This document shows, piece after piece, positions 228 through 4,860 of a stretch of 6,428 nucleotides of DNA. Every line of letters begins with the position of its first letter. The stretch's first letter is position 1. The notes beneath the pieces were generated by a model that had not been told where the DNA came from, made no database searches, and was given only the letters and a program-made list of their open reading frames with translations. This DNA comes from JACRDV01 sp024860865 [NCBI: Methanobacteriota archaeon]. GTDB lineage: Archaea; JACRDV01. The stretch is taken from NCBI GenBank assembly GCA_024860865.1, contig JACRDV010000122.1, positions 1-6,428 on the forward strand. Direction: 5' to 3'. A program made the translations under genes and the position numbers.

Positions 228-1508
228 TCATATTTGAGATTCTCTCTTCCATATTATGTAGGGTGCTGCGTTCCACCCAGAAATCGCCCAAGCTAACCAT
301 TTTGCCAATCCTTCAAGGTCACCCTTAATAACTTCGATTTCAGTTGAAGTATTGTATAGTGGGAAGGAGAGCGGCGAGGCATTTGAAAGGGTTTCGGCCA
401 ATTTTAAAGCCGCAATTGGAGTCATACTAGTGAAACCAAGAGCAAATGTATAGTCGGTAAAATTATAAGTTGTAGAAATTCTAGAATTAATTTCCGCTAA
501 AATTTTATCAATTATCTCATTTGCTCTTCCAGCTCCATCATATGCACCTTTGATGTCCATTCTATTCGAGCACTTCTGAATTTCTATTAAAACCTTGAAA
601 TTCTCTTTCACTTCATCTATGTCCTCAACTTTCTTCACATATTCTAAAGGAGGGCAATTTTCTGGATAGCTGTAGTCCATAGTTTTCTTAAATTCGGCCA
701 CTAAAGCTCTGCTACAAGTTACAAAACTCGTGGGATGAGCATAAGGAACAAGCCTTTCAAAAAACTTTTGTAGTTCTACAAAGTGCTCTCGGTTACGACT
801 TGTATACCCGCCGAGAGAAATGAACATTGGGTTAGTGAGAAGGCTTGAGAAGCAAGCGCACTGGAGCGCATCATCTATAGAATTAAAACTTAATATGGCG
901 CTCGCAACTTGATCTAAGCCTAATAGCCTAAGGCTGCTGATATCGTTTGTAAGATATTCGTATACCTCTTCTTTAATTTCAAAAGTTTTGAAAATTTCTT
1001 GTAGCCGTAAACTTACACTGCCTTTAAACTTCTTTACATCTTCAAAAACTTTCTTTGAAAAAAGGCTCCATTCTTCCCCATGTTTTAAGCCCGCTAAAAT
1101 AAAACTTAAACGCAATATCGGCGGTATATGTCTTTGCTCTTTTAACTCCATCTCTTCGAAAAACTTGTTGAACCAGCTACCATATTTATCTAGATCACTT
1201 ACCAAAATAGGAATGATTTTCTCATCTCTTACCAACTGAGCGAATTCGCTCAATTTCAATCTATAAACTTTTTCAAACAACTCTTGGTTCCTGAAGGGAA
1301 TTAGCGGAACTATTATTTTTTTCATAAAAGGTAGTTGGAAGTGTACTGGCACCCCAGAAAACCAGTTCCCATACGGTTCCTCAAACATAAAGTCTGGGAA
1401 AATGCTCTTAACGTCAAATTTTTCTTTCTTTGAAAGATCTTCTGAAGCCCTGATCAATGATTCTTTTTCCTTTTCCCACCAAACTTCGCGCCAATCTGTA
1501 TTAGGCAT
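228..1508 (-). CDS. Unrecognised 426-residue cytosolic protein
   Basis: I do not recognise this family. It is a full-length open frame from ATG (1508-1506) to TGA (230-228). The first 60 residues are rich in Trp, Phe and Pro (WREVWWEKEK at 6-15, PYGNWFSGVPVHFQLPF at 45-61). Residues 75-310 look mainly helical and charged. The last third is less charged and has a Gly/Ala-rich stretch (GAYDGAGRAN at 321-330; FALGFTSMTPIAALKLAETL at 355-374) and ends with an amphipathic Trp-rich segment (LAKWLAWAISGWNAAPYIIW, 401-420). There is no signal peptide and no convincing membrane helix. The Cys residues (217, 219, 265, 285, 313) do not form a metal-binding pattern. It is divergent from the SplB-like gene. 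A TATA-like box about 24 nt before the ATG and the lack of a Shine-Dalgarno sequence suggest a leaderless mRNA. Length, codon periodicity and a clean start support a real gene; its function is unknown. Confidence 0.8.
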   Translation of the reverse strand: MPNTDWREVWWEKEKESLIRASEDLSKKEKFDVKSIFPDFMFEEPYGNWFSGVPVHFQLPFMKKIIVPLIPFRNQELFEKVYRLKLSEFAQLVRDEKIIPILVSDLDKYGSWFNKFFEEMELKEQRHIPPILRLSFILAGLKHGEEWSLFSKKVFEDVKKFKGSVSLRLQEIFKTFEIKEEVYEYLTNDISSLRLLGLDQVASAILSFNSIDDALQCACFSSLLTNPMFISLGGYTSRNREHFVELQKFFERLVPYAHPTSFVTCSRALVAEFKKTMDYSYPENCPPLEYVKKVEDIDEVKENFKVLIEIQKCSNRMDIKGAYDGAGRANEIIDKILAEINSRISTTYNFTDYTFALGFTSMTPIAALKLAETLSNASPLSFPLYNTSTEIEVIKGDLEGLAKWLAWAISGWNAAPYIIWKRESQI

Positions 1509-2570: not shown

Positions 2571-2657
2571 TTCCACATACTTTTCCGTTAATCTAACTAT
2601 TTTGAGCCCAAAATAAACTGTTAAGATTAGTATTGTTGTAAAGAATACTATCGACAT
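2556..2657 (-). CDS. Possible 33-residue single-pass membrane peptide
   Basis: Short frame from ATG (2657-2655) to TAG (2558-2556). Residues about 3-18 (IVFFTTILILTVYFGL) form a hydrophobic helix long enough, though barely, to span a membrane. They are followed by a charged tail (KIVRLTEKYVEQKVK), the layout of small archaeal membrane peptides with a cytoplasmic C-terminus. The frame is open further upstream to a TAA near 2754, but has no other ATG, GTG or TTG. No Shine-Dalgarno sequence is visible. A weak AT-rich box (AAATATGTA, about 2684-2692) lies about 30 nt before the ATG. It could also be the last gene of the vapBC transcript, 98 bp after vapC. I do not recognise a family, and a chance ORF in AT-rich DNA is a real alternative; the amphipathic layout is the only positive evidence. 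Confidence 0.35.
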   Translation of the reverse strand: MSIVFFTTILILTVYFGLKIVRLTEKYVEQKVK

Positions 2658-2754
2658 ATCTTTGACTGAACTTGCTGGAAAGTTACATATTTCAAAGTCA
2701 ACTTTATGGGAACACTTGAGAACGATTGAAAAGAAAATCCTGTCGAAATCTTAG
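2617..2754 (+). pseudogene. Relic of a Bat/HTH_10-type helix-turn-helix regulator (C-terminal part)
   Basis: An open + strand frame, bounded by stops at 2614-2616 and 2752-2754, encodes about 45 residues. From 2656 it reads ISLTELAGKLHISKSTLW and continues with EHLRTIEKKILSKS. This closely follows the C-terminal helix-turn-helix of archaeal bacterio-opsin-activator-like regulators (typically S-L-x-E-L-A-x-x-L-x-I-S-x-S-T-L-x-E-x-L-R-x-A-E-x-K-I), with the recognition helix ISKSTL intact and a natural stop just after the last helix. There is no ATG, GTG or TTG before the motif, and the helix that should precede it is missing. In another frame, bases 2595-2612 read NYFEPK, which resembles the GYFxxP(R/K) sequence normally just before this motif but is about 35 bases too far away. 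I infer a decayed regulator with upstream frameshifts or insertion. The match is from memory of the family. Confidence 0.45.
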
Positions 2755-2755
2755 T

Positions 2756-3169
2756 TCACGGTAGGATTGAGAATCCATACTGTTTAAAATGTTCATCGTA
2801 AGCAAATGCTGTTTGTATTCCCTCTGCCTCCATAATTGCAAAAGATGTACAATCAGTAAAACTAAAATCCTTGTCAGAATACTCTTTAAAAATTTTCCAT
2901 GCTTTTTCTTCAACTTCCTCAGAAATCCTAAGTATTTTTATAGCCTTAGACTTTCGCATTTTTTCTCCAAAAGTAACGGCAGCTTTATGGTTACATGCAT
3001 ATCTAAGTAAAGTCAATGTTTCATCAATAGCATAATTGGAAGTATACAAAAAGCGGAACTTTGTCCCCTTTTTTCGCAGCTCATCCCTAAAATCAATTGC
3101 TGAGATATGATTCTTATCAGACTCATCTTCAAGGGCTAGAAAAGCGCTAGTATCTATGAACAGTAGCAC
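2756..3169 (-). CDS. vapC: VapC-type PIN-domain toxin (ribonuclease)
   Basis: A 137-residue PIN-domain protein, the expected length for a VapC. The conserved acidic residues for the metal-dependent RNase site are all present: Asp6 in LLFIDTSAFLAL, Glu50 in YAIDETLTLLR, Asp106 in FSFTDCTSFAIM, and Asp125 in FAYDEHF. VapC toxins cut tRNA or rRNA when free of their antitoxin; the target here is unknown. It begins with GTG (3169-3167), two bases after the stop of vapB, and a Shine-Dalgarno sequence (GAGG, 3181-3178 on the minus strand) lies inside the end of vapB with 8-nt spacing, so translation is likely coupled. The catalytic set is complete, so the toxin appears functional. It ends 99 bp upstream of the small membrane ORF on the same strand. 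Confidence 0.9.
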   Translation of the reverse strand: MLLFIDTSAFLALEDESDKNHISAIDFRDELRKKGTKFRFLYTSNYAIDETLTLLRYACNHKAAVTFGEKMRKSKAIKILRISEEVEEKAWKIFKEYSDKDFSFTDCTSFAIMEAEGIQTAFAYDEHFKQYGFSILP

Positions 3170-3171
3170 TT

Positions 3172-3408
3172 TTATTTCCTCTTTTTGTAAAGGTATTTAT
3201 CGTGTTTTTCAGAGATGTCGGTCACTCCACTTTTACCAGAAGGCGGTTCCGTGAAAAATGGATCGCCTGCATTTATTTCAATCTCATGAATGATGTAGCG
3301 CCTTATCGCCTCCCTTAAGCCGTCCTTTAGACTTAATCTTTTTGCTCTCAATGCCGCCAAAAGTGCCTTATATTCTTCTTTCTCCAGCTTTGTTTGTACT
3401 ACTTTCAT
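3172..3408 (-). CDS. vapB: VapB-like ribbon-helix-helix antitoxin
   Basis: A 78-residue antitoxin partner of the PIN toxin. The N-terminus has a ribbon-helix-helix layout: strand KVVQTKL (2-8), first helix about 9-22 (EKEEYKALLAALRA), and second helix about 26-42 (SLKDGLREAIRRYIIHE). This part should dimerise and bind the operator. The C-terminal tail (DPFF at 49-52, SGVTDISEKHDKYLY at 60-74) is a pattern I know from archaeal VapB proteins and should wrap the PIN active site. ATG (3408-3406) is the only good start. Three 17-bp-spaced repeats lie 34-78 bp upstream and are the likely binding sites for autorepression. It overlaps nothing and is followed two bases later by vapC. Confidence 0.88.
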   Translation of the reverse strand: MKVVQTKLEKEEYKALLAALRAKRLSLKDGLREAIRRYIIHEIEINAGDPFFTEPPSGKSGVTDISEKHDKYLYKKRK

Positions 3409-3442
3409 GTTTTTTCACTTCTAAACATTTTTATTTTAATTA

Positions 3443-3493
3443 CATGTATTTGAGTTTTGCATGTATTTAAGCAATACATGTATTTGAAAAAGT
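3443..3493. repeat. Three direct repeats of CATGTATTTRA with exact 17-bp period (likely vapB operator)
   Basis: Copies start at 3443 (CATGTATTTGAG), 3460 (CATGTATTTAAG) and 3477 (CATGTATTTGAA), so the spacing is 17 bp in both steps. Each has a conserved 11-base core with one variable purine, while the remaining bases of each unit differ. The cores contain the palindrome CATG: copy 3 is part of the 12-bp perfect palindrome AATACATGTATT (3473-3484) and copy 1 of TACATGTA (3441-3448). The array lies between a TATA box at 3495-3504 and vapB, covering the predicted transcription start, as expected for a repressor operator. It is not a CRISPR: the units are too short and there are no spacers of CRISPR size. 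Confidence 0.75.
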
Positions 3494-3494
3494 T

Positions 3495-3504
3495 GTATAT
3501 AAAG
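3495..3504 (-). promoter_or_regulatory. Strong TATA box (CTTTATATAC) for vapBC
   Basis: On the - strand CTTTATATAC is the closest match in the window to the archaeal box A consensus. Initiation would be expected near 3473, giving a leader of about 65 nt before the vapB ATG at 3408 and placing the 17-bp repeats across and just downstream of the start. A second AT-rich box (AATTAAAATAA, about 3431-3441) lies 26-30 nt before the ATG and could instead give a leaderless transcript. The box could also be read on the + strand (TATATAAAG), but no gene follows there. Confidence 0.5.
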
Positions 3505-3529
3505 ACATATCCTCAAAATCCTAAAAACC

Positions 3530-3582
3530 TTACTGCCACATGTAAAAAACAGGCAAAAAAGTTGGCAGTAATTAAATGCCAT
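3530..3582 (-). terminator. thiC 3' region: hairpin and U-tracts, probable terminator
   Basis: Downstream of the thiC stop the - strand transcript has two U6 tracts (complement of 3555-3560 and 3544-3549), good archaeal termination signals. A 9-bp perfect inverted repeat, TTACTGCCA (3530-3538) and TGGCAGTAA (3563-3571), encloses them with a 24-nt loop. TGGCA at 3563-3567 can alternatively pair with TGCCA at 3577-3581. The 174 bp between vapB and thiC hold this, the vapB promoter and the repeats, and no gene. Confidence 0.45.
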
Positions 3583-4860
3583 TTATTTTTTTAAATATTC
3601 ATTGATTATTTTTATAGCACATAAATCTGAGCACATTGTGCAGACGCGGGGGTTTTTAGGCAAACATTTTTCTCGATAGGCTCGAGCTCTTGGAGGGTAG
3701 ACTGAAAGCTCAATTTGCCTTCTCCAATTTTGCGCTTTCCTTGCCTTTGCAATGGCTAAATCTTGTTCAGCTCCAATTCCTTTAGCTATATCGCCAGCAT
3801 GAGCAGCAATCTTTGCAGCAATAACCCCTTCTCTAACATCCTCGACATCAGGTAAAGCAAGGTGTTCAGAAGGTGTAACATAACAAATGAAATCAGCTCC
3901 AGCCGCAGCTGCAATTGCTCCCCCAATGGCTGAGGTAATATGGTCGAAACCAGGCGCAATATCAGTTACAATTGGTCCAAGTAAATAGAGTGGAGCATTT
4001 TTGCTCAATTTTTTTGCTGAGAGCACGCTAGCTTCAACTTGATTAAGCGGAACATGGCCCGGTCCTTCTACAATTGTCTGAACATTTTTCTCTCTAGCTT
4101 TATCAACAAGTTCCCCTAAAATAATAGTCTCCTCAATCATAGGTCTATCCATAGAATCAGCTATACACCCGGGCCTCATCCCATCTCCTAGACTCAGAGT
4201 TAAGTCATATTTCTGAGCAAGCTCTAGCAGGTAATCAAAATTAGAATAAAGAGGATTTTCTTTTTTGTTGTGAATCATCCAAGCCGCATGGAAAGAACCC
4301 CCTCTGCTAACTATATCTAAAACCCTACCTTGCTTAATTAGCTCTTGCAAGCTCCGTTGTGTAACTCCGCAATGAACTGTGACAAAATCTACTCCATCTT
4401 TTGCATGTTTTTCAATTGCATTAAAAATATCATCTTCAGACATTTGAACTATCGCGCCTTTTTTTTGGATTGCCTCAACAGCAGCTTGATAAATTGGAAC
4501 TGTACCAATGGGTACTTGAACTTCTTTTAAAATGGATTTTCGAATTTGGTCTATATCTCCTCCAACGCTCAGGTCCATTACAGCATCTGCACCGGCTTCA
4601 ACTGCAATTCTTGCTTTCTCAAGCTCCTTTTTGAGATCTATCAAATCCGTCGAAGTTCCAATATTGGCATTTATTTTTGTGCGCAAACCCTCTCCAATTC
4701 CAACTAATTTAACATTGGTTCGGTTGACATTTTTAGGAATAACCAAGCTACCCCTAGCTAGGCGTTGTCTAACAGCTTCTGCTGATTGTTTTTCAGCTTC
4801 AGCTACTGCCTTAATTTCCTCAGTAATTATCCCTCTTTTTGCGGCAGCCATTAAACTCAT
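3583..4860 (-). CDS. thiC: Phosphomethylpyrimidine synthase ThiC
   Basis: ThiC converts 5-aminoimidazole ribonucleotide to HMP phosphate in thiamine synthesis, using SAM and a 4Fe-4S cluster. From the ATG at 4860 it has 425 residues, the short form common in archaea and some anaerobes. Visible signatures are NANIGTS (64-70), GTVPIYQA (119-126), LSLGDGMRPGC (222-232), VEGPGHVP (264-271) and FDHITSAIGGAI (305-316). His269 and His307 match the two metal-binding His of the family. Near the C-terminus Cys407, Cys410 and Cys414 (CTMCSDLC) should bind the cluster; the spacing is CX2CX3C, one residue shorter than the CX2CX4C of bacterial long forms. An upstream in-frame TTG at 4872 would add four residues (MRGS), but MSLMAAAKRGIITEEI from 4860 fits family N-termini, so I prefer the ATG. 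It stands alone, divergent from the CBS gene 57 bp away, with no TPP riboswitch visible. Confidence 0.95.
   Translation of the reverse strand: MSLMAAAKRGIITEEIKAVAEAEKQSAEAVRQRLARGSLVIPKNVNRTNVKLVGIGEGLRTKINANIGTSTDLIDLKKELEKARIAVEAGADAVMDLSVGGDIDQIRKSILKEVQVPIGTVPIYQAAVEAIQKKGAIVQMSEDDIFNAIEKHAKDGVDFVTVHCGVTQRSLQELIKQGRVLDIVSRGGSFHAAWMIHNKKENPLYSNFDYLLELAQKYDLTLSLGDGMRPGCIADSMDRPMIEETIILGELVDKAREKNVQTIVEGPGHVPLNQVEASVLSAKKLSKNAPLYLLGPIVTDIAPGFDHITSAIGGAIAAAAGADFICYVTPSEHLALPDVEDVREGVIAAKIAAHAGDIAKGIGAEQDLAIAKARKAQNWRRQIELSVYPPRARAYREKCLPKNPRVCTMCSDLCAIKIINEYLKK

What the first reader, a model, noticed from the sequence alone, without database searches (positions are those of the whole stretch)
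3443..3504. 17-bp periodic operator overlapping the vapBC promoter
Three direct copies of CATGTATTTRA start at 3443, 3460 and 3477, exactly 17 bp apart, just downstream of CTTTATATAC on the - strand. The predicted start (about 3473) falls among them. A ribbon-helix-helix protein usually binds palindromes or repeats spaced near one helical turn (10-11 bp); 17 bp is about 1.6 turns, so successive sites would lie on different faces of the DNA. This suggests either an unusual cooperative VapB arrangement or another regulator. The palindromic CATG cores could each hold one dimer.
Basis: partly seen in the sequence, partly recalled or inferred. Interest (0 to 1): 0.6.

Follow-up and report, generated by a model that had tools for sequence, protein, structure and literature searches.

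The report
17-bp spaced antitoxin operator array
Three copies of a short DNA word, spaced exactly 17 letters apart, sit at the front of an archaeal toxin-antitoxin gene pair and are most likely the landing sites through which the antitoxin turns its own genes off; many related gene pairs carry similar core letters at other spacings, most often 7.

Summary
The repeats are real. CATGTATTTRA occurs exactly at 3443, 3460 and 3477, inside 13-bp boxes (TYAAATACATGYA on the - strand), between a TTTATATA box and vapBC. No other such pair was found in the 1.54-Mb assembly, and no shuffle reached the signal. The exact 11-mer is absent upstream of 36 homologues. Its CATG core is not: 9 of the 13 other members of the window's clade have CATG-type chains before vapB, with a 7-bp pitch. 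Over all homologues, chains of score 5 or more stand upstream of 14 of 37, against 0 of 64 control genes and 0 of 29 other PIN loci of the own genome. A four-heptad CATG pattern in 227 genomes hits three places only, all directly before vapB (the pattern was drawn from these). Outside the clade, pitches of 9 and 13 bp appear; 19 of 37 show no clear chain. Best reading: an autoregulatory operator of the ribbon-helix-helix VapB, one dimer per palindromic core. The pitch is a variant of known RHH arrays: about one helical turn longer than a heptad, so contact between neighbours probably needs VapC or the VapB tails. Binding, start site and cooperativity are not shown.

The parts
3475..3487 (-). 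operator box A (TCAAATACATGTA), between the TATA box and the estimated start
3458..3470 (-). operator box B (TTAAATACATGCA), just after the estimated start
3441..3453 (-). operator box C (TCAAATACATGTA), in the presumed leader
3426..3429 (-). possible weak fourth step of the 17-bp chain (AATG instead of CATG, flanks not conserved)
   Evidence: chain of 4 at pitch 17; weak
3496..3503 (-). TATA box TTTATATA
   Evidence: sequence, scan (8 of 8)
3427..3439 (-). possible second, weaker AT-rich promoter element (TTAAAATAAAAAT) that would give a leaderless vapB transcript
   Evidence: read by eye; not tested
3172..3408 (-). vapB: 78-aa antitoxin, N-terminal ribbon-helix-helix (MKVVQT strand), C-terminal tail
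   Evidence: profile of 20 homologues hits ParG, AvtR, ORF56, CopG-family chains; RHH_1 in 9 of 20 and FitA-like_RHH in 6 of 20 members at E up to 0.1, none in the window protein itself; model
2756..3169 (-). vapC: PIN-domain toxin, GTG start
   Evidence: PF01850 E 6.5e-15; closest solved chains VapC20 and AF_1683

Best explanation
The three boxes are the autoregulatory operator of this vapBC operon. A VapB dimer inserts its two-stranded ribbon (MKVVQTKL) into the major groove at each palindromic ACATGY core. Box A lies between the TATA box and the start, so its occupation blocks recruitment of RNA polymerase to the TBP-TFB complex; boxes B and C, 17 and 34 bp further on, add affinity. At 17 bp, neighbouring RHH domains are too far apart to touch as in contiguous arrays, so cooperativity would come from VapC dimers joining VapB tails (as in FitAB-type complexes) or from DNA bending. 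Shown: the sequence, its uniqueness as a pair in the assembly, the gene order, the RHH family signal, and recurrence of CATG-type arrays upstream of many related vapB genes. Inferred: VapB binding, one dimer per box, repression, the start site, bridging by VapC, and release when VapB is degraded.
For: Array real, no second pair in the assembly. PIN gene 2 nt behind vapB. RHH profile hits. CATG chains of score 5 or more in 14 of 37 homologue upstreams against 0 of 64 control ORF upstreams from the same loci, rank test p 1.9e-6; by genus, 10 of 21 have at least one such upstream. A core-free periodicity score is also higher for the 37 than for the 64, p 1.4e-9. Other PIN loci of the own genome: 0 of 29. 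CATGN3CATGN3CATGN3CATG with up to 1 mismatch matches in 3 of 227 genomes, each time just before vapB, control 0. The window groups (support 0.907) with a clade in which 9 of the 13 other members score 5 or more, all nine at pitch 7. A TATA-like box (7 of 8 or better) ends 15 bp or less before the first core, or overlaps it by 2, in 10 of the 17 relatives scanned. Two VapB genes of G261 (L045, L071) keep a heptad array although no PIN ORF shows in the roughly 200 codons behind them.
Against: The exact 11-mer is in 0 of 36 homologue upstreams, and no relative has 17 as the pitch of a CATG chain. 19 of 37 homologue upstreams score below 4, among them nine Thermococcales-like ones, most with a K-V/H/I-VQT strand, and the tree neighbour L073. 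In 7 of the 17 relatives scanned no TATA-like box stands before the array, and no shuffle control was made for that scan. The core and the chain score were chosen after looking at these upstreams, and the pattern was drawn from the three loci it found, so its weight lies only in the lack of other hits. Rows are related by descent; by genus median only 5 of 21 reach score 5. The core-free score is not corrected for base composition. The 65-nt leader implied by the TATA box looks long beside this genome's other PIN operons, by eye.
Confidence: 0.8

Rival explanations
1. The boxes are bound by VapBC, but the working promoter is the weaker AT-rich element at 3427-3439, giving a leaderless transcript; the array then lies upstream of the promoter, as the 13-bp array of L051 seems to do.
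For: In L051 the 13-bp array (-78 to -48) lies upstream of a TATA-like box at -41. Many other PIN operons of this genome show AT-rich boxes close to the start codon, by eye. In 7 of 17 relatives no TATA-like box stands before the array.
Against: TTTATATA at 3496-3503 is an 8 of 8 match and stands right before the array, as in 10 of 17 relatives.
Confidence: 0.2
2. The boxes bind another regulator with a palindromic ACATGT site, not VapB.
For: No binding data; the exact 11-mer is not shared with relatives; in RelB, an RHH antitoxin, half-site spacing was strict (PMC2812701, passages).
Against: No second pair in the own assembly, and CATG-type arrays follow part of this vapB family.
Confidence: 0.1
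3. The repeats act in the RNA or through a leader peptide: an ORF of 24 codons starts in box A (3479, - strand) and its stop overlaps the vapB start codon.
For: The ORF exists (read).
Against: The ATGs of the three boxes lie in three different frames because 17 is not a multiple of 3; the other two ORFs are 8 codons and 1 codon long (read); no Rfam match in the window. Conservation of the ORF was not tested.
Confidence: 0.03
4. A neutral tandem duplication without function.
For: Three copies at a fixed period could arise by duplication of a 17-bp unit.
Against: A 13-bp box is kept and 4 bases vary in each unit; the core recurs in relatives at other pitches.
Confidence: 0.04

Closest known systems
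Omega repressor (ParB of pSM19035) operators, WATCACW heptads
   Same: RHH dimer per short repeat, tandem arrays over promoters, among them that of an operon with a toxin-antitoxin pair; a 7-bp pitch like that in most of the window's vapB clade (PMC9499535 and PMC4803016, passages).
   Different: Core CATG, not ATCAC; here 17 bp between sites, not contiguous; the presumed repressor is the antitoxin itself.
FitAB (RHH antitoxin with PIN toxin) bound to a 36-bp operator segment
   Same: RHH antitoxin plus PIN toxin; [quoted passage not shown]
   Different: Here three evenly spaced direct boxes at an archaeal TATA promoter. FitA's exact site distance was not looked up.
RelBE operator relO
   Same: RHH antitoxin, toxin as co-repressor, short TGT-type repeats over the promoter (PMC2812701, passages).
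   Different: Two adjacent 12-bp half-sites there; adding 2 or 10 nt between them derepressed 45- and 50-fold, whereas here 17 bp is the natural distance.
AbrB-type VapBC, such as that of Shigella flexneri
   Same: VapBC octamers bind two operator sites over the promoter (PMC3384007, passages).
   Different: Antitoxin fold is SpoVT/AbrB; many other PIN operons of this genome look to be of that kind, by eye.

Membership tests
type II toxin-antitoxin, VapBC | PIN-domain toxin gene directly behind a small antitoxin gene | tested here: met
   PF01850 6.5e-15; 2-nt gap
type II toxin-antitoxin, VapBC | toxin inhibits growth and is neutralised by the antitoxin | not testable with these tools
   needs expression in a laboratory strain
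type II toxin-antitoxin, VapBC | antitoxin binds its own promoter | not testable with these tools
   comparative support only
ribbon-helix-helix (MetJ/Arc/CopG) DNA-binding proteins | strand-helix-helix domain with sequence similarity to known RHH proteins | tested here: met
   profile of the family: ParG 2.5e-5, AvtR 3.5e-4 and others; RHH_1 in 9 of 20 members; model with helices 10-22 and 27-43 behind an N-terminal stretch, no strand assigned in the single chain. Against: the window protein alone hits no Pfam family, and no Foldseek match reached E 0.001 (best 0.72, an RHH domain, CopASO)
omega-type heptad operator | contiguous 7-bp repeats, one dimer each | tested here: not met
   window pitch is 17 bp; identity at lag 7 in 3426-3510 is 0.22, at lag 17 0.57. 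Heptad form is seen in relatives such as L046, L047 and L004
archaeal repressor site next to the TATA box | site within the TATA-to-start region | tested here: inconclusive
   box A fits if TTTATATA is the promoter; the start was not mapped

The most novel reading that the evidence does not exclude
In this archaeal VapB family the recognition core (CATG or close to it) largely stays while the array pitch changes by clade (7, 9, 13, 17 bp). Seventeen bp is a heptad plus about one helical turn (240 degrees against 223 degrees of rotation per step at 10.5 bp per turn), so the window operon would keep the spiral path of a heptad array with a one-turn gap that VapC dimers bridge: a repressor family that re-tools its cooperative contact without changing what it reads.
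Probability: 0.3. Interest if true: 0.65.

Novelty: new variant of a known kind. Interest (0 to 1): 0.5.

Why it matters
In RelB, the RHH antitoxin whose spacing test I read, small changes of site spacing destroy repression. A family with one core and several natural pitches would make it directly testable how cooperativity is built, by the DNA-binding domains or by the toxin, and the operator word could help to find vapBC operons of this type in archaea.

Tried and rejected
Close relatives in named collections: the search for related loci with VapB and with VapC in genome contigs gave none, nor did VapB in viral contigs, plasmids or phages. Family, class and phylum searches around the window's genome held only that genome. 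The one viral contig with the paired 11-mer (L014) carries it in what reads by eye as a coding stretch; set aside as chance. Single-sequence PDB search of VapB gave three ankyrin designs at E 0.54 to 0.82. Rfam (gathering scores) and tRNA scans of the window: nothing. A 7-bp signal inside the 17-bp array was looked for and not found (lag 7 identity 0.22). Papers: eight searches; none of the listed titles or abstract starts speaks of CATG arrays for VapB, but the lists were capped, most subscription papers are not held, and only passages of six papers were seen.

Rows dropped before counts; 47 upstreams, 10 left out (L058 truncated; L059, L060, L061, L074, L092, L093 judged by eye not to be VapB-PIN homologues; L008, L010, L013 duplicates), leaving 37 (36 without the window); 30 upstreams, 5 left out (L058-L061, L074); its CATG count includes start codons; 36 rows, 23 examined, 13 weak ones (E 7.9e-6 to 9.5e-5) not examined; 26 rows; 17 read (three of them re-reads of loci, two also), 8 repeats, and L096, with a stop inside, not examined. 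PIN control: 31 rows, 30 with loci, 29 without the window; two of these have only 236 and 185 nt upstream. Tree: 35 of the 37 rows (L054, L057 left out as near-copies), 7 of them without a VapC part; midpoint rooting. In L071 the start codon had to be moved to see the array (score 5); it counts as negative. L062 and L009 look like broken heptads by eye only and count as negative.

Full report
What is there. The finding's three copies are exact: CATGTATTTRA at 3443, 3460 and 3477 on the + strand, part of 13-bp boxes 17 bp apart. Read in the direction of vapBC (- strand) the units are TCAAATACATGTATTGC, TTAAATACATGCAAAAC and TCAAATACATGTAATTA: a box of 13, TYAAATACATGYA, and 4 variable bases. 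The centre of each box is a palindrome, TACATGTA in the outer two and, with one change, TGCATGTA in the middle one. In the 174-nt gap between thiC and vapB the best three-copy 11-column match is 10 of 11 at lag 17; 5000 dinucleotide shuffles reached 8 at most. The own assembly has no other such pair, exactly or with 3 mismatches.

Surroundings. The genes on either side run on the - strand: thiC (PF01964) ends at 3583, vapB runs 3408-3172 and vapC 3169-2756. VapC is a PIN protein whose closest solved relatives are VapC20 and AF_1683. VapB alone hits no Pfam or NCBIfam family, but a profile of 20 homologues hits RHH proteins, best ParG at 2.5e-5; 9 of 20 members match RHH_1 and 6 of 20 FitA-like_RHH at E up to 0.1. 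The model has two helices at residues 10-22 and 27-43 with high confidence there and a poor tail (mean pLDDT 71.8, pTM 0.44); among the top Foldseek rows are RHH proteins (CopASO, ORF56, NikR, Arc), none significant (best E 0.72). TTTATATA at 3503-3496 is the best TATA-like match. Counting 26 bp on (a rule recalled) gives a start near 3473, so box A covers about -14 to -2, box B +3 to +15, box C +20 to +32.

Relatives. The genome is the only one held of its phylum. A wider search with VapB matched in 8 of 297 same-domain genomes, the own one included. Profile searches matched in 26 of 227 genomes of the phylum of G115 (my guess, not a result, is Asgard archaea), 2 of 29, 3 of 23 and 23 of 394 (own and earlier genomes included); some weak matches are other RHH proteins. 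A PIN ORF follows in 34 of the 37 homologues kept, by eye; not in L045 and L071 (both G261) and L009 (contig end). Upstream of many stand regular CATG-type arrays: L046 CATGAAA CATGTAT CATGTAA CATGAGG AATGTAA; L047 CATTTCA CATGTTA CATGTGA CATGAGG AATGTTC; L004, the closest by identity, CATGAAT CATCATT CATCATT GATGGTG. I scored chains of CATG (2) or one-mismatch CATG (1) at any constant pitch from 6 to 20 in 80 nt upstream: 5 or more in 14 of 37 homologues (window included) against 0 of 64 control ORFs of the same loci; 4 or more in 18 of 37 against 2 of 64. By genus 10 of 21 have at least one upstream with 5 or more, 5 of 21 have such a median. A score that knows no core separates the two sets too (means 13.0 and 10.9), though it was not corrected for base composition. 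A first CATG count was 39 in 25 upstreams, start codons included, against a shuffle mean of 18.7 and maximum of 30 in 500.

Specificity. In the own genome 31 PIN stretches were found; none of the 29 other loci examined has a chain of 5 or more in up to 400 nt upstream, the best being 4. In 227 genomes of the phylum of G115 the pattern of four CATG heptads with up to 1 mismatch is found in three genomes only, G500, G502 and G508, in each case directly in front of vapB (in G508 the last core holds the vapB start codon), with no control match. Since the pattern was drawn from these loci, the information is that nothing else matches.

Pitch. No relative has a CATG chain of 17 bp. The clade the window falls into (support 0.907) has 13 other members in the tree: nine score 5 or more, all at pitch 7; L071 does so after its start codon is moved; L009, L062 and L073 do not. 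L073, the nearest neighbour (support 0.509), also has a changed DNA-facing strand, MKSININM for MKVVQTKL. In another part of the tree L051 has three cores 13 bp apart and L050 two. In a third, L076, L077, L094, L095 and L091 have 9 as best period, built by eye on ACAAGT as much as on CATG; three other rows (L009, L052, L089) also have 9 as best period at background scores. L007 shows a weak 10. The nine Thermococcales-like members (L083-L090, L097; the name is my guess) show no chain. Seven bp turns the next site by 240 degrees and 17 bp by 223 degrees at 10.5 bp per turn, so the window keeps nearly the same angular step with one extra turn; this is arithmetic, not evidence.

How it most likely works. 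VapB dimers sit on the palindromic cores; box A blocks polymerase recruitment; VapC strengthens binding by joining VapB dimers; loss of VapB or an excess of VapC relieves repression. The first step has comparative support, the rest is inference from FitAB, RelBE and omega (PMC3920265, PMC2812701, PMC4803016, PMC9499535; passages seen). RelB shows that such operators can be strict about spacing, which is why natural variation of the pitch is worth testing. A second reading of the promoter, with a leaderless start at vapB and the array upstream of it, remains open: a TATA-like box stands just before the array in 10 of 17 relatives scanned and not in 7, without a shuffle control.

Verdict. It is a new variant of a known kind.

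Noticed in passing
window 3405-3479, - strand: A 24-codon ORF starts in box A and its TGA overlaps the vapB ATG (ATGA); possibly chance.
   Followed up: no
window 2617-2754, + strand: Apparent remnant of a helix-turn-helix gene (ends SLTELAGKLHISKSTLWEHLRTIEKKILSKS, then stop) behind vapC; resembles the HTH of bacterio-opsin-activator-like regulators by recall.
   Followed up: no
window 3530-3571: Inverted repeat TTACTGCCA/TGGCAGTAA with T-runs on the - strand just after thiC, perhaps its terminator.
   Followed up: no
L076, L077, L094, L095, L091 upstream regions: A separate VapB subfamily has 9-bp periodic ACAAGT/CATG elements before the start codon.
   Followed up: partly
L045 and L071 (genome G261): Two vapB homologues with heptad arrays but no PIN ORF seen in the roughly 200 codons behind them; perhaps solitary antitoxins.
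   Followed up: no
own genome, loci L015-L044: 31 PIN-domain stretches in a 1.54-Mb genome, many behind AbrB-like antitoxins by eye.
   Followed up: partly
window 228-1508, - strand: A 426-aa protein without a Pfam family above its cut-off.
   Followed up: no
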